From Paralvinella palmiformis (taxonomy: Eukaryota > Annelida > Polychaeta > Terebellida > Alvinellidae): DNA of 64,000 nucleotides. The notes beneath the pieces are model-generated. The model was given only the letters and a program-made list of their open reading frames with translations. It did no database searches and had not been told where the DNA came from. Below, one piece after another: positions 3,401 through 61,514 of the stretch (within the stretch, counting starts at the first letter, position 1; each line of letters opens with the position of its first letter). The stretch covers positions 257,501 through 321,500 of the forward strand of contig JAODUP010000140.1 in the NCBI GenBank assembly GCA_025642065.1, read 5' to 3'. A program made the translations under genes and the position numbers.

Positions 3401-3488
3401 TGTCTTCTCCCACGTGACAGAAAGAATTTCTACCATGATTAATACCGCCGAGAACGTGACTATAATGTTTGTATTGTCTTCTCATAAT
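464..3488. other. Non-coding stretch, no gene seen
   Basis: No convincing exon was found on either strand. The stretch holds a short CG/CA repeat near 991-1016 and moderately CpG-rich DNA. Open frames of 60-116 codons here show no recognisable domain or codon pattern. A splice-donor-like AG|GTAAGT occurs at about 1524-1530 but has no supporting partner. Confidence 0.5.
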
Positions 3489-3661
3489 GTCTAGCGGTAG
3501 CGTGTTGGACCACAGATCACTACCCCCCGGGTTCGAATCTCGGCGTGGGCATATCTGAAGGTTGTTTCATCTTTCACTTCGCTTCATTGCCTTTGCAGGT
3601 CGCTCGGCCCATTTAGCCTACCGTGTGCACAAACATGGCCGTAAAACATCAATCATCATCA
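3489..3661 (+). mobile_element. tRNA-derived SINE, family 1, nearly full length
   Basis: The head resembles a Pol III tRNA promoter, with an A-box-like TCTAGCGGTAGCG and a B-box-like GGTTCGAATC. The body reads from ATATCTGAAGGTTGTTTC to TGGCCGTAAAACA, and the 3' end is a short ATC repeat. The same head, body and tail recur at 35847-36030 (minus strand), 51533-51672 (minus), 52128-52253 and 52913-53011. The first ~10 bases of the head are missing or diverged. Recurrence within the window is seen directly; tRNA ancestry is inferred from the A/B boxes. Confidence 0.85.
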
Positions 3662-6553
3662 GATTGTCTAAGTACGTCGATATAACTAATATCCAGTGAA
3701 ACTTGCATGCCGACCACAATCTACATAACATACATAGCCATTACGGGGCTAACTCAATCAGCGAAAGGAGAGGCAGTTTCTGGAAAATCAGTGGATTCAA
3801 ACGAAGAACTTCTCACAGTTTGACGTTCTATGGTATCCACTTGGCCATCGTGGATGGGACTGTTTATGCTTTTTCAGTGAGGCCTCCGTTTCTGTGCCAT
3901 TACTTCTACATTATTTATTCACTGTTAGATAAGTTTTATAATTGGTCTTGAAATAGGATTTGAAATGTGATATCAATAAAACATTACGGGGGGGGGAATC
4001 CAATATAGTTTATTATTAGGATTAGAAGTCTTGTGGCTGAATGAAAGGTTACATCCCAGCCACTAGTCTGTCTGTTATTAGTAGTAATTAGTGATGTTTG
4101 ATTAGAGGTGCAGTTAATGTATTCTTTGTAGTAAAGCCGATTAGGGATTAAATTAAATATTATTTCATTTTTCACCCATTTCTACAAACGTTGATGACAG
4201 GTGATGATAGATTTGTGGAAAGTTAATGCAGTCTCAGCGGGCTAACAGAAGATTGCCATGATTTGATCAACTCCGATATTTTTTCTCCCCTTTCCATCGT
4301 TTCTCGTCTGAATATTTAACAATGTGATGGGAGATGCCATTATTGCTATTGGCCCACATTATCTTTCTTGTTAAATAGGTTTAATTAGCTTAATTAGCTT
4401 GATTAGTTATTCAAATGGATACCATTTGATTGTGAACGTGCATTATAAGGCACATTCTGTTTTCGGTATGAGATGGTTTAACAAGACTCCCCTCAACAGC
4501 TATCAGAAAAACTTCTATCATAAAAAATTGCATCATCATCATCATCATCGTTCTGACTATGTTAAATGTCAATGATTCTATTACAAAAATGCTTCCTCAT
4601 AATGTTTGGTAATGACTCTGCAGTATTTGGCGGAGTCCAGTGGAAATAAACAGTCTAAACTGGGTTTCAGCTGGATTGAAGGGGTTCTTGGCTCAGTCTT
4701 GTGTGGCACTAATTCAGATTTAATTGAGGCATTTTTAAGATGGGATTCTCCGAAATCAATAGATAAATGATGTGCAGTGCACGTCATGTTCTTGCCCAGT
4801 GATCGAGCACCACTGATTGATTCCCATTTTCCAAGAAAATTGTCCACTTTTAGTCAATTTGCCAGAGATCAATAATGAATATGGACTGATAAGATTTTCG
4901 TGGTGGAGCCGATGTCCTGGTCTCCACCGGCTGATCCTTCGGGAAATCCAGTTCATTTCTGTTGGGAATTTGGCAAGGACATTGATGGAATTGCACTTCT
5001 CGAGACAGGAGTATTTTTTTAGGGAAATAATTGTTTGCACAGAAAATGTGGCCACAAGTGAAGCATTGGCACTTTGTGTACAGTTGGTGTGCAGTTGGGT
5101 AACACCACAGTATACTTACCTCATTCCGTGATTGCTTACCCACGTGTCGGCGTATTTCTGTGGAGAACCACAGCTTTCATTTGTCTGTATTTATATCTCA
5201 TTCCCCGACTCAGTGCGCTGTAATCTGACAGTCACCTTGACATCATTAATTACGAAGGGCGTTCCTGTCACCTGTGCATCGGTGTGCCAATAGAGCTGTG
5301 AATGGCGTTTTTCAGCGCCTGTGTGTGTGCGCGCGCACATACACACGCAATTAAATTAAGTCTATAATTTTCCCCACACTAAAAACATAGCCAAATAAAT
5401 ATACCGTATTGGTGTGTAATTCTCTGATATAATTGCTTCACGTGTCAGGGCTAACCACCTGTTGCCACTGTTCTTGGAAAGTCGTCACCGGTAGCATGTG
5501 TTTGGTAGAAAGTTTAGACCACACAGCAACAAGAGTCAACCCGGTTATCTTTTGTGTATGGTCTGGAAAAAAATAGAACAATATGTCTGTAATAAAAGAC
5601 GGGAGTTTTTACATCAGACCTAGCCAGCTCAAACGCGGTGCCTGATAAATATTATCACAATTTTGGCTCTAGGATGTTTCGTGCCCTAAAAAAATGGGAA
5701 CAGCTATGATGACTTGGACGGCTTATTGCTGATTGACTAAATGTGTGGAGGTAATGTTGGTGTTGGTTAATGTGTAATATTTGATATATTAGACGGGATA
5801 TAGATTTAGTTATTATTAATATAATGACAGTATCTTTCTGACGTGTAGATATTTCATTCTTACAGATATGTTTGTAGTAACATAAGACAGTTTATTCCTC
5901 TGATATTTTATTCGCGTACTTGCTTCCAATCGGTTCTATTGTGTGAAAATGTAATTAGGCTTTATTCGGTTAACACGGTTTGTTATTAGATTGATTTTTA
6001 TGGCTATTATGGTTGCTTGTGACGTCATCCCACACACATTGCTTCCCGAAGGCGGATCACAGGTGTTCACATATCAGTTTCCAATTTAACTACAGGTGAC
6101 TTGTAAATGACTGTTCCAACGATGCCAGCCACAAGCGTGGAGTAAATGGTAGCGGTCGTGATGCGATTAACCAAAAAGAACGGCATCATCAAATTGCATC
6201 CCATTTCAGCTTTTATAATTTCGCGTGCAGTTCTTGCATTTCCGTGTTCCAATTGTTTTTCCTCAATTAATCTACCGAACACACCTTTATTGCGCGGTAC
6301 TCGTCCTGATTGCGTCAGTGTTTTGATGTGATACGTTAAAGGCCATACTGAAACATTGTACAAACGAAGTATAAATCTTGGTTGACCATCTTAAAGAAGA
6401 CAGACTAGAATTAATACTGGCTGATCGTAAGGACTTCGTCATTCATTGTTCATTGTTTATAGTGTTGCTGTCAAATTAGTTAATTACCTTTGTCTTACAC
6501 CAATTACACATCACACAGTTTTCTTAAAACTATTTCACATATTATTTTTACAG

Positions 6554-20414: not shown

Positions 20415-23154
20415 GGTACTGGAACAGCGATTTACAAAATTAATAGTCAATACAAGCCGAATCCCTGGACTGAATTCTGAGAAGGGACTTCTCACGATGA
20501 GGCTTTCTAACGAGATCGTCATTCATTTTATACAAACAGAAACCAATTCCGACTCATTCCACCATTACTTTCGCATTATTGATGACGTCATGCTATACGT
20601 CACCGTCTCGTCGTAAGGTGCCGATGTTCAACGGTCGGTGGGTTATTTCTCTGTTCTTGTCATATTTTACGACATCCACGTGACAGCGACAATTCATCAT
20701 CGACCCACGTGTTGGAAGAAATCTAGACATCCTCGATCGGATCAGTTATCTCTGCGAGGCCATCAGAGAATGTGTCATCTTCCCGCGGCCAGAGATTTTA
20801 TTTACTAGAAAGATGAATGAAGATCGGTGACTGATGTGTGTTAGATTTGGGGTTTGGTGAAGTTGGTGTTTTATCAGATCATGGCAGAGAGGGGATAACT
20901 AACATCTGGTTGGTGGTCGTTCGGCTCGCTCTCCGCCCGACGTCGTGTTTGTTGTCGCGATGGTAAGATTTGGCACGGTTTTATTTTGGGTCCGGGTTCT
21001 AGAGATGGAAGGGGTTAGGATAGGGGTATGGATCAGGGCGGGATCGGGACTCGTCGGAACCGGATCGGGAGATAACGGGCAGAGAACTGACGGGGGAGAA
21101 GTAAATATGAGTAGAGAGAGACATGGGGAGGGGAAACTCACACAGACGGACTTCAATGACGGGTGGACGGGCAGAGGGACGCGCGTTCACACACACACAC
21201 ACACCACGCACGCACAATTGTGTATGTGTGTGTGTGTCTGTGTGTGTCTGTGTGTGTGTTAATTTCTCTGGAGTAAATCGTCTAGGATCAAATGTGGACC
21301 ATGCGTCCAGTATATTGTTGCTATCTTAGAAAAAAAAACCCATTTTGCTATACACAAAATAGCCATTTATTGTACTACCAGGACTCAATCCACCGGATAG
21401 TTTTCCTAAAACCATTGTTTTCTTTGCAAAATGCTATGGTGTGTGATGTGAGCTGGTCATGCCAACGTACACACAAGGAAACTCCTGGGAGGTCCACCGC
21501 ACTCCCCAAGAGCGTGTCCGTGTATTAATAAGACGTGGAATTCTCAGGAATGAAGGTTGAATTTCACAATATCGACAGAAAAAATATGGCGCCCTGTAAT
21601 AACAATAGCTTTCCGCCTGCTCTATAAACAGCTGGAATTGGTTCATTTATTAAGAGGATAGCGTTGTTTGTGACACTCGATCGAGATGTTTATAATACTA
21701 GATTATCAAAGTGAACATGAAATTGATGTAGCTTTATTACCGGACAAACAGCAAGGTGCTGGTCGAAAGCCGCAATACCCCCCCCCTCACCTTCCCCCTC
21801 TGCACACTGTCTTAACTCGACAATCAAACAAAATCTTCCCCCCGGCGCCGTGGCATGCCCAGCAGAGTAGAACACTTGTTATGACAATTAGTAATGCAGT
21901 GTACCGGCGGCGTGTGAAGGGGAACATTTCTGTAGGCGGCTAGCTAGCTGAGCCATATGATGGGCATTAAACCGGAGAGAAACATAAATATTGTGATTCT
22001 TCTCTCTCTCTCTCTCTCTCTCTGTGGCCAGTAGTTAGAAGGCGAGCCGAGTCGGTAGTGTGTTATGGCGGTTTCTCGGAGTCAGACACCCCGAGGAGCG
22101 GCGAGGTGTCTGTTGGTGGACACCTTTTCTGTGGAGAGAAAAAGCTAAGGCTAGCTTTGATCTTCACTTAAACTAACAGTACCGTAATTGTTATGATGAA
22201 GCACCCGGGCTCTGGATTGGCGCAAACCGAATTATGCAATTTCGTGCCTTCCCGAATCTTGGAATATTTCTCTGTAGCCGGATGATAGATTGTGTTTTGG
22301 GCAGAGCGCTCTTGGCCGACCAGTCTCTCCGATCGGTGGCGAGTGCGCGTCGCGTTTTCAGGAGCGAGTCTATCTGGCCAACGATACTCGTGGATGTGGA
22401 ATATGTGAGATGTTTTAGGGTGCGTTTTTATAGACTAATATTATTGACTGGATGGATGGTAATGGGATTATAATCAGGATTGGCGAAGGTAAACGTTCGC
22501 CGAAGATGTTTTATTGGACTCCTGCCCGGGATCGTACGGCTATGACAATTTCTTGTTAGCCGCATGATGAATCGGATAAACATCTAAAGGTGACCCATGG
22601 AATTGAGTCAGGAATGTTATGCTGAAGGTCGTGACCTGTAACAGCACATTTCCGATGGCGGCAGAGCAATAGGCGCCGCCTAGAAATCAGCCTATCCAAT
22701 GCGGACGCGGGGGTCTGTGAGGAAGGATTCCGTTGATATGTTTGGACAATTTTGCAAATTGCGGCCTGGAAATTCGCGTCGAAGGATATAATTCTGTTAG
22801 TGAATGGTATTTGTTTGACGTTAATGGTTGTTGTCAGAAGGATATGTAGCCCGTCATTTTCTTTTGTTGCCATCCGTAATGGTGTTAGCTTATATAAGGA
22901 ATGTAATTGTAGTGTTCTTCTTATTGATATAATCACGTTTGTAATGCAAAATCTATCCAGTCTGGATGTCTATACATTGATTTGTAAATTGTATACGCTC
23001 TATTGGAGGCATATAATAATGGCGAGTCTGAATAGTCAAGAGAGATGTGATTAATTTCAAATTTGTTATCCTGTTTACTGAAGTTTAGATTTTATTTATT
23101 TTTTGTTTATCATTGTGGGATGGCTGTTTTTGTTGACATATCGCTAAAGTGAGC

Positions 23155-35423: not shown

Positions 35424-35846
35424 TTGACAGCTGTAGACAAAAGCGTTGGAATGTGATAATAACACGCTGACCAGTGTTCTGTCACTCCAATTGGTCTGTC
35501 GTTGTTTACTACAGCTAACACCGGGATGTGTTTATGGGATGGTGTTGTTTTGTACGTGAACTACTGCCCCAGAGCAAGCCGGTACTGTTCGGAGCTGGTA
35601 CATGGAGGGTAGGTATGTGGTATGGGTGTCGGGGGTGTCTATGGGTTTTAACCTCTCAGAAGGCTAAAGGGGTATCCTATTTCATTAAAGTGAGGCAAAG
35701 ACGACGACTGCATAATTTCACCTGTCTCAACTCCCGTGGAAAGCTAACTTCAGCATGCGAACCCATTATTCCACTTGCCCGTGTAAGCACCGAATCCGGC
35801 TTCACCATGCACAGATACCCACATGCATGCAGTGATTGTGATCAGA

Positions 35847-36030
35847 TTTGATGATTTGTGTTTTACGGCCACTTTTGTGCACATGGTAGGCTAAACTGGC
35901 CGAGCGACCTCCGAAGGTAATGAGGCGAAGTCAAAGATGAAACAACCTTCAGATATGCCCACTCCGAGATTCGAACCCGGGTGGTAGTGATCTGTGGTCC
36001 AACACGCTACCGCTAGATCACGGAGGCGCC
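35847..36030 (-). mobile_element. Full-length tRNA-derived SINE family 1 with target-site duplication
   Basis: On the minus strand it runs from GGCGCCTCCGTGATCTAG (A-box region) through GGGTTCGAATCTC (B box) and the conserved body to TGGCCGTAAAACACAAATC. The flanks carry an exact 17-bp direct repeat, CAGTGATTGTGATCAGA, at 35830-35846 and 36031-36047. That is the target-site duplication expected of LINE-assisted retroposition. It is the best-preserved copy in the window and defines the element length as about 184 bp. Confidence 0.92.
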
Positions 36031-38875
36031 CAGTGATTGTGATCAGAAATGTACCGTTTTCCAATGTGATCCTGCCTATTCATCTAAGGAGGCAATAAAA
36101 TGTGTCATTTGCATCATAATGAAGGATGTACCACATCCACAGTGTATTTGTAATGCAATCATAATTGCCGTGTGGACATAGCTGGCATTTTCTAAAATAA
36201 GCACGACACCTGCAAACTTAGCATTTAATGACCAACTATTGCACACCACTATGCATATATTTAAAAGAATTTTAGCCACACCACGCGAACATATATTCAG
36301 TGAACAAAACTGTTTGCGCGATATAAACAAAAGTTCTATCTGTTTGTGGTCAGTATACCCAGTTGACCTGTTCTAGTGTATGTACAATAAACTGGAGCCA
36401 TTTAAACGCCGAAGCATGATTGTATCATGTTCAGATACGGGGTAGTATTATATAACAGGCAGCTACCGACGGGCCATGTTGACAGCAGCAAAACCACTTT
36501 CTATGGCTGTATACTCCGTGGCTTGGTATTCAAGTGTTTGTGATGAAGAAAACAAATACCTTTACAGGGCTAGTGAGTGTGTGTGTGTGTGTGTCTGTCT
36601 CTGTGTGTGTATATGAGTGCGTGTGGTTGGGCCGCATACCTGTTCCTATCGATATGGTCCAATGGACACCGGGCTTTAACAAGTAGACGACTAGCTGGTA
36701 TAGTCGCGGTGTGTATGCGTCTGTAAGACGTATCGTGGTAGGTATATCATTGTGTGCGCGCGTGTGTGTAGAAAGCAGTATAAGCTTGTGGACGTGAACC
36801 AACTAGGAGAATATATATATATATATATATATATATATGGACGGCAGTGGAAAGAACATTTACGCTGACTAATGCAACACGTATATATATATCAGTAACG
36901 GCTGTTTTGTTTGTAGCTCCATAACCATCACCAAAAGTGTGATAGGTAACAGTGATCACAACCGGATTACACTACTGGCTGAGCTGTGGTGGTTCAGATT
37001 AGAACCACATCATTGTTGATCGTGTACTAGTCCTGATTGTACGAAGGATACTCGTACCTGGAAGGTCACACATGAACCGGGAGACCATCTTCGCTCTAGT
37101 TGTCTCGATACTGTCGAGGGATAATAGACCATGTTGTGGTAGGATTACTGATGACGTACCCTTCGGTAGGTCGACTGTGTTTACCTTTTGTCATTTTAGC
37201 GGTCAATACGATTTAGGATCATCTGTTTACTTATTATTACTTCATCCGCTTGTAATCTCGATTGGCGATCCCATAAACTGGACCTCAGGTAAAGAGGATG
37301 GGCTGCTGCTAGGTCGGTGTGTCTGTTTTTGGTTATTTGTAACAACTATTAATGACAGGTTATTTAATGTCGTAATCCCATTGACGGTTTTTACCTTGTT
37401 TATGCCGTTCACACGTGTTAATCGTGTATGTAATTTATGCGCTGACAGTTAAATATGCTTCACAATAGTACTTAATTCCGACTGTAACCATACCATAAAT
37501 GGTGAGGTGGTAATGTTGGTGACGAATGTGGTGACTCTTATGGCGGGGCCTTAAAAGATAGTAGTTGGCTGTTGCGGTTTTACACGCGCCGCACGCACGC
37601 ACACGCACACTACGAAGACACTAGTTTATAACATAACATAACACTGCTGTCATCAACGGCCAAGCACAATTATTTATTTCCACATCATAAATACTGAGCT
37701 ATTAATGTATAGTTAATATTAACTCATTAACATATGGTTGTTATGCCAAGTATGTCAACCTTTGGTTATAAGTTATCTTATTAACAATTAAGACGGTCAT
37801 CTCTGTCTCATGTTTGTCATTTTTGAGGATACTTCTGGATCACGTTTTTCAATTTCACCTTCTCATAGGGTATGAAAATATGAATAAATATGCATATATA
37901 GGAGTCCCTCTCATGAAAATATATTCATACAGTTGTCACGCTCATGCAAAAATAGCTAGTGTCATGTGTCTGTGGCACAGTTGCCCGTTTAACAAGAACC
38001 CCCCCCCCCCACACACACACACTGCTGTAAGGTTTTGTCTCGTGTTTTCATGGTAAAGGGATATTTTTGCGTCAAATATTTTCCAAGGGTGTAGGCCCGT
38101 GTTACCAGTTTAATAATACCACGTCATTCATTACCTGAGCCAAGTTGTTGATGTAGCTGTGATAGATCTACCTTTCATTTGACTTGCCAGATGTGACAAA
38201 GCCATGAATGCTAACACCGATTTCAACCGTGTCACCCGTTTGTAAACAGTTTTTATAGTTCATATAATATCGAGAATGGAACCTTATTCGATCATTTTTT
38301 TATCCAAAGCTCCGAATAAGACGTAGTTACTGATTAATGGTAAATGTTCTAGAATTTAGCCTTACCTATTCTTAATCAGTAAAGCACATCCCGTCCTGTG
38401 TCTTTGATACGGAATCACCCCATTAATGAAACTAGCGTTAGTCACAGTTTTCCTAATTGGCGGATGTGCGAATAAGAAATGTTTCTTTTTGCCGAATTTC
38501 TTGTCGTTTATGAAGAATTCGTTCTAACATTTTTCCGTTCGTGTTGTGTTTTCAAGACAAAACTCGGCCGAGGCATGGGTGTTTTACAGGGAAGTGATTC
38601 ATCGTCCATGGTCTAGTGACGAGAGTAGATATCTCTGTTTTGATCATTTAGGTGTGGCTTCTATAACGATTTTTATTAGTAGCTGTCCTGTTGTTGTGTT
38701 GGGCTAATTTACTGTGCCAGTTATTAGCCGTTTTTAACCGAACAGTGAAATACTTTTGTTTGGGTTGAGCAATGTTTAGAGCGTAGATAGTTATATATTC
38801 TCGAATTAGAGGATCATCTTTATTTGAGAACAATGGCATATATTATTATAAATGACCACCCAAAGCAGGTGTTAC

Positions 38876-39336: not shown

Positions 39337-39642
39337 TGACACAGTTCGGCCCAAAGACGCAAAATCTTTTAAGGAACGTTCATATTTATGGCGGTTCTGG
39401 TGTAGTGTTTTATGTGACCCATAAGAACAACAGCCTTCCTCCCAGTCCGGGTGTTTCTATACTCCTGTGTGCGCGTCTAAATGTGGCAGGTTATGGCTTT
39501 GCAAATGTGTTTGCTCATCTGAATAGCTTCGTATCGTGAAGTGGCAAAAACCCACAGCACAAGTAGTTAACCGTTGGAAGCCGTAAGACTGAATAAAACT
39601 TCAACTGCTGAGGATGTACAGCGTTTTTGTGTGTGCGTGTGT

Positions 39643-39668
39643 TTTTAGCTGTGTATAATAAGGCACAG
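39643..39668 (+). repeat. 26-bp dispersed direct repeat, copy 1
   Basis: An exact 26-bp match, beginning TTTTAGCTGTGTATAATAAG, to 40176-40201. Both copies are preceded directly by a TG-rich run, suggesting microsatellite-associated duplication. Confidence 0.8.
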
Positions 39669-40175
39669 CCATTTTATATTTTAAGTTTATCAGAAATGAT
39701 ATTTTATAAAATCTAAAGACAGTATATGACGTGGATGTTTTAACTGTGGGTACGCAGACATTCGGGTTCCGAGCAGCAATCGAGTGTCATATAAGACATC
39801 CTTCTGAACGTTTGGTTAAGTCCGTTTTCAATCGGCAAGTACCTCCAGGTAAAGTGGTGTACTGACGTCATCAATGTGTGTGTGTGTGTGTGTGTATTTT
39901 CCAATAAAACTCAATATTATTAGAATCGTCTGAAAAAAAGGGTATTTGGCCTCCAAAGAATCGCTTTAACAATAATTGAGGGGCAGCTCGGAAGAGAGAT
40001 AGACAATATTAATGGTTCTGTCTCATCGCTTGATAACTAACTTGTACTTAGTTTATAGCTAGCTTCACGTGTCTGGAGTAAGTATGAAACTGGCGTGACA
40101 TTTTCAGATCTTCTGTATGCAGGTGTGTTTATTTAGGGGAGGAAGTGTTTGTTTGTGTGTGTGTGTGTGTGTGTG

Positions 40176-40201
40176 TTTTAGCTGTGTATAATAAGGCACA
40201 G
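40176..40201 (+). repeat. 26-bp dispersed direct repeat, copy 2
   Basis: Exact match to 39643-39668. It is again preceded by a (TG)n run and lies about 110 bp upstream of the duplicated plexin exon segment. Confidence 0.8.
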
Positions 40202-40314
40202 GCACAGGAAATCTCGAACCGTGAATTCAAACTCTGGACGTTTCTTCAGGGGACTGAATCCAGAGTGGCGACTTTTCTTGCTGAGACATGTGTAATGTCT
40301 CACCATGCAGTCCC

Positions 40315-40506
40315 TGTTTCTAACGATGAACATAAACTAGTTATGTCGATGATATTTCACCACCAGGTGTAGTCAGTGTACTGTCTCCCAGTTCCCATGT
40401 CATTGCAGTCTCTATGACAATCAGTGTCGTGATGTGACAGCAAGTTGTACACAGAATGAAGGTTCTATTGGCATTGGTCAGAAGGTGTGTGTGTGTGTGT
40501 GTGTGT
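40315..40506 (+). pseudogene. Duplicated copy of plexin exon 8 (PSI2) with flanks
   Basis: This segment matches 61274 onward of the plexin gene: about 50 bp of upstream intron, the acceptor, the whole 118-nt exon (40367-40484) and the adjoining (GT)n. Within the exon there are no indels and only two adjacent substitutions, at 40406 and 40407. They change the PSI core Trp-Cys (TGG TGT) to Cys-Ser (TGC AGT). The upstream intron part differs by a one-base indel and a few substitutions. Homology stops before TGTTTCTAACG on the left and at the microsatellite on the right. The copy lies about 13 kb upstream of the first plexin coding exon, in the same orientation, with acceptor and donor dinucleotides intact. 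It encodes no complete domain, so it is best read as a recent exon-sized duplication, although inclusion in a long 5' UTR transcript cannot be excluded. Confidence 0.9.
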
Positions 40507-42054
40507 TGCAAACGATTCGTTTGGCAGTCATCATTATGATCTGTGACCTCGTTTACATTACATAATGGAGCCATAACGGTTTGTATAGAAGCTAGTTGAT
40601 GCCTTTGTCTGGGAGTACATCGTCACTGTCGGGCGGACGTTTGGGTTTCTTATCGGTTGATCTCCACCCGACTGTCTACCTGTGTCAGGTTAGCTTTAGA
40701 TAATGTGGATGTCATCCATGATTAATAATGTGCGCTTGATGGATCATCATATTTTCATGATATGTTTCAGATGGCCATTGGCACAATTGGCATCCGATCC
40801 TTTGCCGAATAGCGCATTGCAACGAACACAGTCAGTTGTTTGGAATGGCTACTTACTGAGAAATAAAATCTCATCCTTGGGTCATCAATGTAGCAGTAGA
40901 CAGAATCAGAGGTTTCAACTGGCCATTAGTACATAATGCACATGCGTATACCAACTAAAGAGAGATCTAGTAATGCGTGTATTCGCTTGTAATATAAGCT
41001 GCAAAAATGAGAACAACTGCCGGGTATAACACACGCACACAAACAAACACACACAGAGAGAGAGAGAGAGAATGGTTTCAGTGGACGGCGCTTTTAACTC
41101 CTAAGTGCACTTCATGCGATTTGCACTGATGTATGTTTGGCAGCCAGCTCCGTATATTTATGGTTTAATGAGCTTATTCATTCCAGTAATGCCCCGACGA
41201 CCTGGTATGCCGACTACAATACAATATCGGCCACTATCCGACTGATACTGGACACGGTGACGTTTGTTTGTAACTCCATCTGAGTGTGTCCATCTTTTGA
41301 GCGGGCTTTTAGTTGACGGGAGATTGGACGCTAGAAAGAATCTATTTGCTAGCTGACAGCTTCAATCCCCAGAGAATCTTTCTAATTACTGGCTGACAAG
41401 CGTTTGAGTTGTGTGCCATTTCAAATAATGCAGCATCTTAGTGCAATATCTGCTATATAATAATAGTGGAACACCCGAAACCCCTGCGTGTGTGTAAGTG
41501 TGTGTGTGTGTGTTCTGTCTGTGCATCATGGTTATTTCCTTACTGTCTGTATCTATCGTTATCTGTGTTTTGGGCTATTTGTATCCGTGTCTACGTGTCC
41601 ATCTCTTTCTTCTGATGTCTCACAACTATCTACTGTTTTGTTAACACGTTTGTCTCTTTCCGATTTAGTATCTTTGTTTATCACTTTGTTACCGACTTTG
41701 TCATCCGATGTGTCAGTAAGACACACACACCACCCATAAGACGTTATTGTTAGTTCTAGCTGGATATGTATCTTACTTTGTAGAAGAGAAGTAAATTTCG
41801 TAAACATCTAGTAACTTAGAAGAAAAACAATCCATTTCATATTGTTCTTGGTCAGTGCTTACATAAACCTTTACATATTAAAGGTGTTGTTTCAGTAACT
41901 CGGAATCGTGTGGAGAAGATAGGTGATAGATAGATAGTTAGTTTATTTGACAATTTCCATTTATAAACATTTCGCTGATAGACGATAGAAAATTTCTTAA
42001 AAGTAAAATTTTATCATGAAAGTGTGGGTCCAATACAAGTGCACGTACGGTCAT

Positions 42055-51152: not shown

Positions 51153-51532
51153 ATCTCTGTAAATTGATATCTTACTGTGTGCATTTAAAATGGCTTAGTA
51201 CTGAACTCTAAGGACTTGATATTTTAGAACTAGAAAGGACACTCTTATCAGATTTGAATTAGCCGTTTAGTTAGATGAAATTTGAATGATGAAACTGGAT
51301 GAGTTTAGTTTTAAATGTGACAATCAGGCCAGTTATTGATTACTAAATGAAACATTCTACAGACATAAGTAACGCTGGCTGTGATCGAATCCCACAAACT
51401 TAACATCTGCAATTCACCAACTGTTGCAGTACTTCGGTTAATGCAATGTTATGTATTATGAGTTGAGGTAAAGTTGTAATTACAGGCGAGATGTATATGC
51501 GGTGTTTATCCGCTGAATACGGTGTAGTCATG

Positions 51533-51672
51533 TATGATGATTGATGTTTTACGGCCAATGTTGTGAACATGGTAGGCTAATGGTAGGTAATGAAGCGAAG
51601 TCAAAGATGAAACACCCTTCAGATATGCCCACGCCGAGGTTCGAACTCGGGTGGTAGTGATCTGTGAGGTGC
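51533..51672 (-). mobile_element. SINE family 1 copy with head and body deletions
   Basis: The minus strand carries part of the head with the B box (GAGTTCGAACCTC) and the body to TGGCCGTAAAACATC. The 5' part of the head is missing (the match jumps from CACAGATCACTACC directly to the flank). About 20 bases of the GTCGCTCGGC region are also lost. Confidence 0.8.
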
Positions 51673-52127
51673 CCGAATAGCAGATGTCCGCACTTCGACT
51701 AAAATATAGAACCGGCAAACTAAACAGAGACGTTTCAAGTGTCTCTGCATTAATACTTGCCAATCACAGACAGTAGAATATAGCGTCCGGAAAAAGGCGT
51801 AACTAAACACAATATATGAAGATTTGATGTGTCTGTGATTTCTTAAATGTCGACTTTACGATGAGTGTAGCAAATAGGATAATCGCATCAGTAAATACGG
51901 CGTCCTAAGTGATTATTTCTGCTGGTCAAGATTGTGTTCTTGTTAAATGGACAGTAATGTATCAACTTGAAATGTTGAATAGATTGTGCCGAATTTGTTA
52001 TTACGGGCAATAGTTATTACGGGCAATAGAATAATATGTGTACCTGTGTGTGCACACGTACACAGGATTATACGCTATCTATCTTTGCCATTAAAACAAC
52101 CCGCCCCCATCTCCATTACTATTCGTA

Positions 52128-52253
52128 GGCATATCTGAAGGTTGTTTCGTCTTTGACTTCGCCTCATTACCTTTGGAGGTCGCTCGGCCCATTTAGCCTA
52201 CCTTGTGCACAAAAGTGGCCGTAAAACACAATCATCATCATCATCATCATCAT
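52128..52253 (+). mobile_element. SINE family 1, 5'-truncated copy with ATC tail
   Basis: The body begins at GGCATATCTGAAGGTTG and continues to GTGGCCGTAAAACACAATC with an (ATC)n tail. The tRNA-like head is absent. 5' truncation is usual for retroposed copies. Confidence 0.85.
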
Positions 52254-52912
52254 ATCCATTAATATTGTGTTAAAACACAAAACTCGTTGTAGTGATCAAG
52301 TCTGATCCGTGAAATCACTGAAGGAAGCACCTGATTTTTGGATCATGGTGACTTTCATGGGAGTGTTTGAAACAGCAGAGACGCTGCATAAATCATGTTG
52401 ATCATTTAATCCGTTTATATATCCATAGAATTATCGGTTCATGCTTGTCTTTATGCCCTAGCCATAAATTCCTAGAATAAGCTAAACTTCAGACATTGTT
52501 GAGGGTGTAATTGTGTTGATCCGACAAGTTAATCATCTTGTTTCTTCAAGAAAAAATTTCTTTTTAAGCACATTCCATGCCATATATTAAATACCATTCT
52601 GTCTGCGCTATTAACGCCGAAATATTCTATGTATTTCACCACTGGAGAATCTCCCCGATGAATCAGCCTGAAAGAAATTGATGTTAAAGTCTCTAGCAAT
52701 GATGATGTGTATGAATTCGAGTTAAAAATATTATTCAATTTTAGCTGAAATGATGTCAAATATTTGGTATTTTGGGAAAGTATAGCACAACGCCTTTGAG
52801 GGTTTAATGGACTTTTTGCAAATTTAATTTTTTTTCTACAAATAATTTCTCATCCTACTGCATTGCAGACTGCCATCTTTGTACTTATCTGATGCTCCAC
52901 ATGTCGGGGGTG

Positions 52913-53011
52913 GGCGCCTCCGTGGTCTAGTTGGTACCGCGTTGGACCACAGATCACTACCACCTGAGTTTGAATCTCGACGTGGGCATATCATATTGTT
53001 TCATCTGTCAT
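52913..53011 (+). mobile_element. SINE family 1, head plus short body
   Basis: GGCGCCTCCGTGGTCTAG begins the head at 52913. The B-box region reads GAGTTTGAATCTCG, followed by the start of the body, which then diverges after TTGTTTCATCTG. A short open frame across it is a by-product of the SINE. Confidence 0.75.
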
Positions 53012-53465
53012 ACGTTGATCAATCAAACACTAGTTTAAACGGTTTATATAAGTTTAATTCTATATTTGTATACATTCTTATGGCAGAAGAACTGTCTGAA
53101 GTGATACTCATAAAGATTCATAATTGAAGTAGTAAATAGTGTTCCATAAACCAACAGGTTTTACAGTCATAAATAGTCATTTAGTTGCATTTTGTTCATT
53201 TGATAAATTTGTAGTTTAACGCCAACAACCTTTAGAAACAACGTTAAAAGTTGTGACACTTACATATTGGTTTGTCCAATTTGAAAGGCGACGGGCCAAG
53301 ATATATCTCATCTCAGATTATCTGTTAAATTACCTGCTATAATAATACTGATATCACTTTAAAGTTTCATTAGTGTTTGTATCTTTTGTTACTAATAAAA
53401 GACCAAAATAGAATTAGATTTTCTTCCGTTTCATCTTAATTTTAAAATTATTTCCACATTTACAG

Positions 53466-53560
53466 GTGGTGAAGCATAGGCAGGAGGACCTTCTTCAAGT
53501 TCTGAAGAAGAACATCTTCATCATGACAGTGTTTGTGTTCGCCCAGTAACATCAACCAAA
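53466..53560 (+). other. Plexin 5' UTR part of first coding exon
   Basis: An acceptor (TTTCCACATTTACAG) ends at 53465, so at least one upstream non-coding exon is expected. The frame of the chosen ATG has a TAG stop at 53477-53479 and no other in-frame ATG before 53561, which supports the start at 53561. An 8-codon upstream ORF is contained at 53523-53549. Confidence 0.65.
53523..53549 (+). promoter_or_regulatory. Upstream ORF in plexin 5' leader
   Basis: ATG at 53523 opens an 8-codon frame (MTVFVFAQ) ending TAA at 53547-53549, 11 bases before the plexin ATG and in a different frame. Upstream ORFs of this sort can dampen translation of the main frame; that effect is not shown here. Confidence 0.45.
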
Positions 53561-54721
53561 ATGTGGCAGCTTCGTGATGGATACAGATCTCTATCTGTCA
53601 GCACACAGTGTCATCTCTACTGCATATTGTCAATATTTATCCTGCCGCTGACTGGGAGAACTTTGGGCTTCTCGGGACAGATCCAGAAATCCCAGAAACT
53701 CAATCATCTCATCATAGATCCTGGTCCTGGTGACCTCTATATCGGGGCAGTGAACCGTATCTTCAGATATGATAGTGATTTGGGCTTGTTGAATGAAGTG
53801 AAAACTGGACCTAGAAAGGATAATCCGGCTTGTATTTATCCGTTTGGAGGATTGACTTGTAACAGTGCTGGTAATGATGTTTATGACACAAAGGATATTG
53901 ACGATGTAAATAAGATATTGGTGTTGGATAAAGGTCATTCAAGGCTAATAACATGTGGCAGTGTCTTTCAAGGAACTTGTCAAACATTTAATTTAGAACT
54001 GACCAGTAACTCTTCTTATAGAGATGATGTAATTTACTTTATTGCTGCCAATAACATGGATTCTTCAACTGTGGCATTTTTGGATAACTCAGCATTATAT
54101 GTTGGTGTAACATATAGTGGCACCGAGGAGAATGCAGATACCAGGAAAGGTGTCCCTTTTGTGTCTAGTCGACAAATTAGTGGAGCTGACATATTTAAAT
54201 ACACAGCAACAGATGATTTAGAAGGAACTGGAACTTATTTGTTCCTAAGTGATGTAATTCAGGATTCATATTTAATATCGTACATCAGTGGTTTTGGATT
54301 TGATGGCTATTCATACTTTTTCACAACGCAAAGGGAATCACCGAATTCACAGAAATACACATCAAAGATAGCACAGATTTGCCAGAATGACAGACAATTC
54401 ACATCCTATGTTGAGATGCCACTAATATGTCAAACTGACAATATTACCTACAATCTAATAACATCAGCCGTGTTAACAAAATTAGGTGAAGATCTTGCCA
54501 GTAATTTGAACATAGCATCTACAGATTATGTGATTGTTGCTACATTTGTCAAAAGTCAAGCATTAGAAGGTGATGATAAGAGTACACAATCTGCTGTCTG
54601 TGTCTATACGATGGACTCTGTTAGAGAGAAATTTACCAAAAATCAACAAAACTGTTTTGAAGGAAGCCAGGAAAAGATAGGAGATCAATTTAGTTCTACA
54701 TTAAAATGTACACATTTATCA
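53561..54721 (+). CDS. Plexin exon with start codon: signal peptide and most of sema domain
   Basis: Encodes residues 1-387 and ends in phase 0 at ATCA|GTAAGT. The open frame runs 33 codons further into the intron; those residues are not plexin-like and should be excluded. A long 18-residue n-region precedes the hydrophobic stretch CILSIFILPLTG. The sema cysteines and the SRLITCGSVFQGTCQ segment are present. N-glycosylation sequons occur at NSS and NIT. Confidence 0.93.
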
Positions 54722-57700
54722 GTAAGTATCGGTTTACATTTGGCATTTATAAACTTATTTTTAATGCTACCACTTGCTTTTTTAAACCTAAAATTGATAA
54801 TCGTCAACTTGGTATGCATGTAATTAAATTGCTGAAAAATCACTAAATGAACCAAGTTCAAATTAACATTCGAAAGGGGTGGTATAATAATGGGAAAGAA
54901 CATTTTGTCCCAACGACATTTTGTCCCACTGACATTTTGTCCCGCTATCGATATGGCTAATATTTATTTCGTAATAACAAATTAGCAGCACGTGGAAAGT
55001 GTAATAATGACTTAAATCGTTGTAACCTGATTTATAATGCGCTTTCTCGTCGCGTTTGTGTTTGCGAAACGAGGTTCAATCCTGACATTATTTCAGGGTT
55101 ACACAGTTCCTATTAATTACTGTGGTGAGAAGAAACTTAACAGTCCATTATCAGGAGAGGTACCTCTGATATCGGCTTCATTAATAACCTTCGTTGATGA
55201 GCCATCCCTTACTGCTGTAGCTATAGACGTTGTTCAGAGTCGGTATACTGTAGCCTTTATAGGAACAGAGGCAGGACATCTGAAGAAGGTAAGACGACGA
55301 TGACGCGATTAGGAGATTCTGATGTAATACGGTTAGGAAGAGACACCCGGATGTTCATTTTGTGAAATATTTAGGGACAGTTTGAGAATATAATTATAGC
55401 TAATGAAGCCATTTTATGAAGCTTTTTAGAAATGAAGCATTTTAGGTAATCACCATTTTAGTTATTTTACACGTTACTTTAGTGCGCGGAAGAAATCTTT
55501 TTACATTCTGAAATAAAGTTGAATTAAAAAATGCAAATAATATAAATGGTTACATTATGATATTTTCATTCATAACTTATGTTCATTATGATGATATTCA
55601 TTCCTTCGATTATGTTCTCCTGGACCATTTTATAACGTATTGTTTGTATTATATATTGTTTGTATTATATATTGTTTGTATTATATATTGTTTGTATTAT
55701 ATAATGTTTGTATTATAGGTGCTGTTGTCCTCCAATCACCAGTCAAAACAATATTCTGATATTATTGTTGATGAAGGTTCACCAGTTAACAAGGATATGG
55801 TGTTTAGTAATGACAGAAAACATTTATATGTGATGACAGAATATAAGGTAAATATCAGTAACCTAACTGCGGGTATGGAAATGAACCTTTACACTACTTT
55901 TTACTTTAGTTTTTAATTCACACGGTTTGGTTGGAAAAAGTAAATTGCTTTATGTCTTCTTTATTTTGTACTAATGCACAAAGAAAATATTTTTGGACAC
56001 CTGTAACCTTCTATGCATATATTTAAATTTTTTATAGAAATATATTGGACTGAAATAAATTAATCAACATTCTTTGGATTTCTGTGTTAGTTCTACTATG
56101 TTCATTTGATTGGTCGATTTGGTGACATCAGTAATGGCACATTTTAGTTTTTCCCGCAAATCGAACATTTTGTGAGTAAGAAATGGGTGAAATCCTACTG
56201 CGTAAAATTGCCTTAGGTGATGTTTTAATGACTGCTGCAGTGTTAATCATCAAAATGTTTATCCCGAGATCAGCGAAATGATTTGACATACAGTAATATT
56301 ATTATTATTATATTTTCACGTACATAGAAGAGAGGGTCGTGGATGTGGGGTAGAACAATATTAATCAACAATACTTGGCTCATAATACAACAGTTCACCG
56401 ATGAGTTCTACTCAGAACATGCACAAAATGTCAACAGACAAATCCAATGAGTCATTTGTTCTTTCTGTGTGTTTTCATCAATACAATTAACTATTAGTCA
56501 AGATACATATTTTATATATTCATAAATGACAGAACTTCTTAATGCTTGTATTTATAATGACTAATGAAAGCACCACTAACCTATTGAATAACTTGGGTTC
56601 AGCTGATGTTTATAGCATATATAATCTCCATCATTATGATTAAAAAATGAATCTTGTATACATACAGTATAATATTAATAGACCAGGAAGATTGTAAACA
56701 ATATTTATTTACCTTAAACAATTTAGCGAAATGCATTAAATTGACAACAACAAAAATAGTCACTACAAATTAACAATAGCCACAACCATGTTAATCTGAT
56801 GCATGCATGCACACACGTATTTTCTTTTTATTATCTAAATACAAGTTTGAAACATTATGTTGTCATCACTATATTGCAGATGTTTGATTGGCTAGTTCTT
56901 AAAACTTAGTAAGTCTAATAACACTAAAACTGACTATATTAAAAGTCAAATCTTGTGAACAACAGCTGGCCTGGAAAACCAATTCAGTTCTCTCTTGTGG
57001 GCTAGGTTCAGACATGGGGTCAATTCTGTTTTGTCAATTCCACATCAAATTGATCAATTCTAATTCAATTCCAAATTTATCAATTCCATTTTTTACCATC
57101 TACTTTTTATCATGAGTAGGTACTGTGAATACCTACTCTGAGTACCTACTTGGAATATCTACTCCGAATAGTTTATATTCCAAGTAGGATTGTCGTAGGA
57201 GAAATATTTCTGAATTAAAAAATTAAATGGGAAATTAATTTGTGGATTAAATTTTTTTGTAGCAAACTTCAATTCCAAATTTATCAATTCCATTTTTTTT
57301 AATAAGCAATTCTAATTCTGGAATTGGAATAGCCCATCAATTCCAATTCCAGAACTTAACTAGGTTCATATGGATGAAAAATAGGTGTTTCTACTTTGAT
57401 GAATTATCCACACTTAGTGATCATAGGTTATGAAACAAAACAAATAAGATCAAACAAAAGAAATATAAAAACCACATTTACATCTTCCATTCCATATTTG
57501 ACCTTCTTTTTGAAACTTTAAAATACACTTTTATATTTGATGTCCATAATTTTCTGTGTGAAAGTCCTTCTAATGTGGAAAGATGCTACCTTTTAATGGT
57601 GGTTGCTTGAGAATTTCAGAAACATCTAAAAAATTCAAATTATTTAAAGCTAAAAAATATTCAGGAGAACATACTGTAACTGGCTGATTATTATCATGAA

Positions 57701-59470: not shown

Positions 59471-61442
59471 CACACACACACACAGAACAAGCAAGTGTGG
59501 GCTTCTGTAAGACTAAAGATCAAAAAGGTCACTTAGTGCCATCAGATACTAGATCCTTATGGAGGATCAGTAATTTATCTGCCCAAAAACCTCCTGTGAC
59601 TATTTGTTCCAAAAAACCTGTAACTACATCAGCCTCTCTTTAATATAAGATATTGTATATGCTAAATGCTAAATTTAGGAGTCAGTGGCATGATTATTGT
59701 GCTAGCGCACAGTGCTATATTTCCCTGTTTTGTGGATGCAATATTCAGAGAATAATTAAAAGGCCAGCATTCTACCCTTTAATGACTGGTTAGAGATGAG
59801 CATTCCTTTTCATGATGGAACTAAGTTAATGCACATACAGTTTGCTGGGTATCTGTATCATCTGTGTGTATGGATGAGTAGATGATTTCATAATTAACAT
59901 GCCACTGCTGGGCCTGGCTGGATATGATGGTGAGTGGTCACCATTATACTTACGTACACTTGTACTATTAGACTCGGTTAGTTGACCAAGATCTATGACA
60001 GATGTGTCAGGGTATGGCCATAGGGTTTAACATTATCTATCCATCTTGATGACAGCACTGTCAACAACAACAACAACAACAACATTGATATAGTTCACAT
60101 TACTCATGAGCATAAACTGTTAACCTGGTAGTACTAGTGACCACAACTGATGTTGATCCAAGGATTGCCTTTCTAAAATGGAGGCAGTTAGGCCTCCATT
60201 TTGTTCACCTTAACTGTAGCCTCGAGTGTATGTCTGGATTCAATGATCTGCAGCATCTGGACGAAAGTGTCCTAAGGCCATTGTTTTTTTTTTAATACTT
60301 GTTTTACGGAAAATTAAATCACTGAAAACAAGGTCGGTCGAAAAATATTTACTTCTAGTTCTAGTTTCTGAAAGATTTGCCAGATACCCAACCATTTACA
60401 AATGTCCCACGACACATATTCTGGATTACTCTTGTTTTGTTTTATTTTTATATTGATATTCAAATTCAGTTTGACAATGATATCCACTGGAGTGTCTTCC
60501 TCGATAATCATCTGGCCCACGACAATGTTTTCTATAACATATTCTTCCTTTAGTAAAACAAGTATTCAAAAAACAGTGGCCTAGTTAGTGTTTATATTCC
60601 TTTAAATTACTGTTTGCCCCTCTCACAATAGCTTAATCCCAGAACCCCCCCTCCCTCTCTCTCTATTGTGTGTGTGTGTGTGTGTGTATATTATGAAGTT
60701 AATTTATTCTACAGGTTAAACTTAGCATTACTAGCCTTCCAAATGGTCAGAATTATAAATGTGTCTACAAAACAACAAATGCTGAAGTGGTTATTGATGC
60801 TAATAATAGTAACGGCTCATCCTTAACATGCTCCACACCTGCCGACCAATCAGGACTTTGGATTAAGGAAGGTCAAGGTCTGTTTAATAGATTCAACCTA
60901 AATTATAGTGAATAAAATGTTAATTGAGTAGGTCATATGTCAGTATTTTTATCAATTATATCATGGGCTGCTATAATACGTATTATAGTTATTTATTTGT
61001 CAGTAGATACCAGATGTATTAAAAATAAATGTAGTTTAAAAAATGGTCGGATGTGAATAATGGTTTTCTCTTTTCTCTTTCAGATCATCTAAATGCAACA
61101 TTAGCCATCAGATCACTTGAAACAAAAGTGGATTTTCTAAATACATTATTTGTACTCTACACATGTTCTGAATATGTGACGTATGTTTATTGTCTTATTT
61201 TTATGGATAAGGATGTCAGAATTATGTTATTTTGCATTTATACACGCTCTTAATTATATACTTAAATATAGTTTGTTTCTAACGATGAACATAACGATAG
61301 TTATATCGATGATATTTCACCACCAGGTGTAGTCAGTGTACTGTCTCCCAGTTCCCATGTCATTGGTGTCTCTATGACAATCAGTGTCGTGATGTGACAG
61401 CAAGTTGTACACAGAATGAAGGTTCTATTGGCATTGGTCAGA

Positions 61443-61514
<72 letters not shown>

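What the first reader, a model, noticed from the sequence alone, without database searches (positions are those of the whole stretch)
40315..40506. Near-perfect orphan copy of plexin exon 8 (PSI2) 21 kb upstream of the original
Seen directly: ~190 bp matches 61274 onward, including upstream intron, acceptor, all 118 exon bases and the (GT)n after the donor. Only two adjacent exon substitutions occur, and they hit the Trp669-Cys670 pair of the PSI core (to Cys-Ser). The copy is in sense orientation upstream of the first coding exon, with intact splice sites. Inference: a recent DNA-level duplication, since intron and acceptor came along and retroposition is therefore ruled out, possibly mediated by the (GT)n tract. 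If transcription starts far upstream, it could act as a cryptic 5' UTR exon.
Basis: seen in the sequence. Interest (0 to 1): 0.8.

Follow-up and report, generated by a model that had tools for sequence, protein, structure and literature searches.

The report
Stray copy of one plexin exon
A 192-base piece of an animal plexin gene, one exon with a little of its neighbouring introns, has been copied about 21 thousand bases upstream, most likely by a small copying accident at a GT repeat; such insertions are a known kind of event and no function has been shown.

Summary
The copy is real in this sequence. Window 40315-40506 matches 61274-61466 at 96.9% over 193 columns (E 2.87e-89): 52 bases of upstream intron, the whole 118-base exon (116 identical) and 22 bases of (GT)n. 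The two exon changes are adjacent (GT to CA) and turn the PSI-core Trp-Cys into Cys-Ser. The donor is a plexin PSI exon.

Best explanation: a short templated insertion, copied from plexin DNA with (GT)n as the likely anchor, then joined. Closest known: MMIR in yeast, MMBIR-type templated insertions and class 2 templated sequence insertions in humans. A second, 29-base duplication 110 bases away also abuts GT-rich DNA.

Included, it would bring four upstream ATGs. I found no evidence of selection; transcription could not be tested. The own-genome search did not complete (11 identical requests), so copy number and a second assembly remain unknown. Ordinary; low interest.

The parts
40315..40506 (+). 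the inserted copy as a whole
   Evidence: 96.9% over 193 columns to 61274-61466, E 2.87e-89
40315..40366 (+). copied end of the upstream intron with acceptor AG
   Evidence: 52 against 53 bases, 4 differing columns
40367..40484 (+). copied PSI exon; one GT-to-CA change, Trp-Cys to Cys-Ser; frame open across the exon
   Evidence: 116 of 118 identical; PSI_PlexinA-B 16.4 bits, under the 25-bit cut-off
40407..40408 (+). AG made by the CA change, a possible internal acceptor (..CATTGCAG|TC..)
   Evidence: seen in sequence; 11 of 17 pyrimidines before it, against 10 of 17 for the copied acceptor; use not tested
40485..40506 (+). (GT)11 tract after the donor site, right edge of the homology
39643..39671 (+). 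one copy of a second short duplication, after an impure GT stretch
   Evidence: 28 of 29 identical to 40176-40204; impure GT stretch seen
40176..40204 (+). other copy of that duplication, touching a pure (TG)n tract at 40154-40176
53466..53561 (+). start of the first coding exon: apparent acceptor before 53466, in-frame stop, then start codon at 53561
61274..61326 (+). donor: end of the upstream intron
61327..61444 (+). donor: plexin PSI exon
   Evidence: PSI_PlexinA-B 33.8 bits (cut-off 25) and PSI 25.5 bits (cut-off 23.1)
61445..61511 (+). donor: 67-base (GT)n tract

Best explanation
A non-functional templated insertion. Shown: the copied segment, its two edges, (GT)n at the right edge in both copies, no A/T run, and no duplication of target sequence adjoining both junctions. 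Inferred: a broken end or stalled copying strand near 40.3-40.5 kb paired through (GT)n with the long GT tract after the plexin exon, copied about 170 bases leftward through the exon and 53 bases of intron, and was joined to the left flank; the copy at 40 kb is the derived one, and it now drifts as an intronic or intergenic pseudoexon, so that loss of the PSI-core Trp-Cys pair is neutral decay.
For: High identity across intron, exon and GT tract with sharp edges. The right edge lies in (GT)n, which makes up 1145 of 64000 bases (1.8%). Of 12 self-matches in the masked window, 9 belong to one SINE-like family; of the other 3, 2 abut a GT tract in at least one copy, both inside one 864-base stretch, while 3.0% of random points lie within 10 bases of a tract. 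No A/T run of 7 or more; flanks share no more than chance. The PSI exon sits in a plexin gene that has its other exons around it, so the 61 kb copy is the parent. Known precedents: MMIR (PMC2518615), MMBIR-linked germline insertions (PMC8421209) and class 2 insertions (PMC5110952), passages read.
Against: The empty site is unknown, so a GT tract at the target before the event is not shown; the copy may have brought its own tract. The GT association rests on two cases chosen after the fact, the third non-SINE duplication (57064-57094 and 57268-57298) has no GT tract within 2 kb, and the 39643 copy is 232 bases from the nearest pure tract (its own GT stretch is impure). MMIR was described for much larger duplications than this. 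Exon differs less than intron (2 of 118 against 4 of 52 columns, Fisher p 0.072; 1 against 3 events, p 0.086; 2 against 5, a count not supported by the alignment, gave 0.029), which leaves weak room for constraint on the copy.
Confidence: 0.65

Rival explanations
1. RNA-templated patch: a fragment of unspliced plexin pre-mRNA was reverse transcribed and used to fill a double-strand break (class 2 templated insertion).
For: Sense orientation, retained intron, size 192 bp against 73-414 bp (median 191) for experimental insertions in human cells, no poly(A) and no adjoining target-site duplication (PMC5110952 passages).
Against: Does not by itself explain why the edge lies in (GT)n or the second GT-abutting duplication nearby. 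Orientation alone has a one in two chance.
Confidence: 0.13
2. Assembly artefact: a haplotype fragment or chimeric read joined at GT repeats.
For: Long GT tracts are hard to assemble; the site cannot be checked in reads here. P0001, 97% identical over the sema exon on another contig, shows that close variants of the locus exist (12 of 420 residues differ), so allelic differences could explain the mismatches.
Against: The left junction (40315) lies in non-repetitive sequence, so a GT-mediated misjoin alone does not make it; two junctions within 200 bases are needed.
Confidence: 0.1
3. A cryptic or used 5' UTR exon of plexin, kept for regulation.
For: Same strand, both splice sites kept, upstream of a first coding exon that starts at an apparent acceptor; exon part slightly better kept than intron part (p 0.072 on columns).
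Against: No RNA data; the transcription start is unknown. Included, it would add four upstream ATGs, all reaching stops and none opening into the main frame. The better-kept exon is not significant and partly expected if the parent exon is conserved and its intron drifts.
Confidence: 0.06
4. Capture and carriage by a mobile element (Helitron-like or similar).
For: None direct; gene-fragment capture by such elements is known (recalled).
Against: The flanks match nothing else in the window except the 29-base repeat and GT tracts. In 39400-41400 the 16 inverted repeat pairs reported are all GT/AC-type tracts. Helitron end motifs were not tested and the genome could not be searched.
Confidence: 0.04

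Closest known systems
Microhomology/microsatellite-induced replication, MMIR (Payen et al. 2008, PMC2518615; passages read)
   Same: Duplication by template switching between microsatellites or microhomologies, within a chromosome.
   Different: Shown genetically in yeast for large segmental duplications; here 192 bp in an animal, with a repeat at one edge only and no genetics.
MMBIR-linked templated insertions (PMC8421209; passages read)
   Same: Short insertions copied from another template, found as germline variants (103 and 99 events of 25 bp or more in two human donors).
   Different: Called from human reads against a reference; microsatellite calls were removed by hand there. Here the empty site is unknown.
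Class 2 templated sequence insertion polymorphisms (PMC5110952; passages read)
   Same: Size (experimental insertions 73-414 bp, median 191), no target-site duplication, no poly(A).
   Different: There attributed largely to reverse-transcribed RNA patches; here the GT edge points rather to DNA copying. Polymorphism not tested.
Sp185/333 gene cluster of the purple sea urchin (PMC3091723; passages read)
   Same: Duplicated coding DNA with edges at microsatellites in an animal genome.
   Different: Whole genes of an expressed family flanked by GA repeats on both sides; here one exon fragment with GT on one side.

Membership tests
MMIR / microsatellite-anchored templated insertion | Edge of the duplication lies in a microsatellite shared by donor and copy | tested here: met
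   (GT)n at the right edge of both copies
MMIR / microsatellite-anchored templated insertion | Microsatellite present at the target before the event | not testable with these tools
   No empty site available; own-genome search unanswered
MMIR / microsatellite-anchored templated insertion | Dependence on Pol32, independence of Rad52 | not testable with these tools
   needs genetics
Class 2 templated sequence insertion | No target-site duplication and no poly(A) | tested here: met
   No A/T run of 7 or more in 40200-40620; only a chance-level 6-mer shared by the flanks (530 of 2000 random pairs share 6 or more), 17 bases beyond the right edge
Class 2 templated sequence insertion | End-joining marks at the junctions (microhomology, microdeletion, added bases) | not testable with these tools
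   needs the empty site
Class 2 templated sequence insertion | Polymorphic in the population | not testable with these tools
   no second individual at this site
Processed retrocopy / LINE-mediated (class 1) insertion | Introns removed | tested here: not met
   52 bases of intron and the donor-side GT tract are present
Processed retrocopy / LINE-mediated (class 1) insertion | Poly(A) and target-site duplication of 5 bp or more at both junctions | tested here: not met
Functional 5' UTR exon | Splice sites kept and position upstream of a coding exon that starts at an acceptor | tested here: met
Functional 5' UTR exon | Present in spliced transcripts | not testable with these tools
   no RNA data
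PSI domain (plexin) | Copy still scores as a PSI domain | tested here: not met
   PSI_PlexinA-B 16.4 bits, cut-off 25; donor 33.8

The most novel reading that the evidence does not exclude
The copy is a live 5' leader exon of the same gene: a PSI-coding exon turned, by a GT-anchored insertion, into a regulatory noncoding exon that brings upstream ATGs, with a second acceptor created by the CA change; and such GT-seeded exon copies are frequent in this GT-rich genome.
Probability: 0.04. Interest if true: 0.6.

Novelty: new member of a known kind. Interest (0 to 1): 0.2.

Why it matters
It is a clean, apparently recent case of an exon with both splice sites being scattered by a short insertion beside a GT repeat, which is raw material for new exons. 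Two GT-abutting duplications within 864 bases suggest that a genome-wide count in this species could test how often dinucleotide tracts seed such insertions. As a single locus it is ordinary.

Tried and rejected
Degenerate copies of other plexin exons: tblastn of eight exon peptides against the window gave the exons themselves, the known copy, and two short matches at E 0.80 (22127-22159, 9498-9463). The ex7 peptide was taken in a wrong frame, so it tests nothing, and exons after 61.7 kb were not used.

Second assembly: a search with the copy's reading frame (40353-40562) found no candidate; this says little, because such short frames are seldom predicted. The sema exon search gave 18 proteins; P0001 (97% identical, ENA, 17.9 kb contig) differs at 12 of 420 residues, none in the first 164 and one in about the last 50. 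It is probably the same or a very close species; its contig could not be fetched.

Template for the CA change: the left flank holds GCAGTC as well, but 530 of 2000 random flank pairs share 6 or more bases. Dropped. Quasi-palindrome: the altered intron stretch has hairpin arms of 6 in the copy and 5 in the parent; suggestive of a template-switch mutation, not tested against chance.

RNA: 0 Rfam matches at gathering score, 0 tRNA genes (bacterial-code ARAGORN). Papers: seven searches. No paper held three of plexin, pseudoexon, exon duplication and PSI domain. One search listed papers on tandem duplicated exons that are alternatively spliced (seen as listing only); those are tandem and expressed. 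Passages were read of four papers; none was read whole.

Full report
What is there. The window holds the 5' part of an animal plexin gene on the + strand. The first coding exon (start codon 53561) encodes a sema region: 53561-54670 matches solved plexins, best 6fkm 'Plexin A, isoform A' (E 3.9e-56; Drosophila is recalled), and 18 proteins of 1152 candidates, the best 97% identical. The exon at 61327-61444 encodes a PSI module (PSI_PlexinA-B 33.8 bits). The species was not identified.

The copy. 40315-40506 repeats 61274-61466 at 96.9% (E 2.87e-89), and is the strongest of 12 self-matches in the masked window. It holds 52 bases of intron, the 118-base exon with one adjacent pair of changes, and 22 bases of (GT)n against 67 in the parent. 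Nothing aligns left of 40315 or right of the GT tract. The change turns Trp-Cys into Cys-Ser, and the Pfam score drops to 16.4 bits, under the 25-bit cut-off. One reading frame stays open across the copied exon.

Mechanism. The retained intron excludes a spliced template. There is no A or T run of 7 or more in 40200-40620, and the flanks share only a 6-mer (GCAGTC) that lies 2 bases before the left edge and 17 beyond the right edge, a sharing that 530 of 2000 random pairs reach or exceed. The right edge sits in (GT)n, which makes up 1.8% of the window. A second duplication, 39643-39671 and 40176-40204 (28 of 29 identical), ends 110 bases before the copy; its 40176 end touches a pure (TG)n tract and its other copy follows an impure GT stretch. 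So two of the three duplications outside the SINE-like family abut GT-rich DNA; the third (57064-57094 and 57268-57298) does not. This is a small sample, seen after the fact. Template switching between microsatellites is described in yeast (MMIR, PMC2518615, passages), germline templated insertions in humans (PMC8421209, passages), and class 2 insertions of this size without target-site duplication or poly(A) (PMC5110952, passages). I favour a GT-anchored insertion copied from DNA and keep a pre-mRNA patch as the chief rival on mechanism.

Age and constraint. Exon and copied intron differ in 2 of 118 and 4 of 52 columns (Fisher p 0.072), or about 1 and 3 events (p 0.086). Some excess in the intron is expected if the parent's exon is conserved while its intron drifts. 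This does not show selection on the copy.

Possible role. The first coding exon begins at an apparent acceptor (TTTACAG|GTGG, 53466) and has an in-frame stop before the start codon, so at least one noncoding 5' exon probably lies upstream. The copy, about 13 kb before it, could lie in that intron. Spliced to 53466, the copied exon would bring four upstream ATGs, one of them nested in the frame of another, all reaching a stop; with the internal acceptor made by the CA change (exon from 40409) three remain. One further short upstream frame already lies in the first coding exon. Splice-site strength was judged only by consensus bases and pyrimidine counts. Transcription was not testable.

Limits. 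The own-genome search did not complete (eleven requests). No reads, RNA or second assembly could be examined. Copy number elsewhere, the empty site and polymorphism are unknown.

Verdict.

Noticed in passing
3480-3665 (+), 35845-36035 (-), 51530-51680 (-), 52110-52245 (+), 52905-53030 (+): Five copies of one dispersed repeat that looks like a tRNA-derived SINE: A-box- and B-box-like motifs (TCTAG.GGTA.CG, GGTTCGAATCTC; motif reading recalled) and an ATC-rich tail. ARAGORN and Rfam called nothing in the window.
   Followed up: partly
39643-39671 and 40176-40204: 29-base direct repeat (28 of 29 identical), 533 bases apart, each copy directly after GT-rich DNA.
   Followed up: partly
57064-57094 and 57268-57298: Perfect 31-base direct repeat inside a plexin intron, 204 bases apart, without a GT tract nearby.
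   Followed up: no
about 52000-54000: G+C falls from 0.35-0.49 in the 2-kb bins before 52 kb to 0.30-0.34 in those after 54 kb, about where the plexin coding part begins.
   Followed up: no
53561-54820: P0001, from another contig, differs at 12 of 420 residues: none in the first 164, 11 from 165 to 369, and one (415) in the read-through beyond the presumed exon end. Perhaps a diverged allele.
   Followed up: partly
40334-40345 and 61294-61305: The intron changes of the copy fall inside an imperfect palindrome; hairpin arms are 6 in the copy and 5 in the parent.
   Followed up: partly
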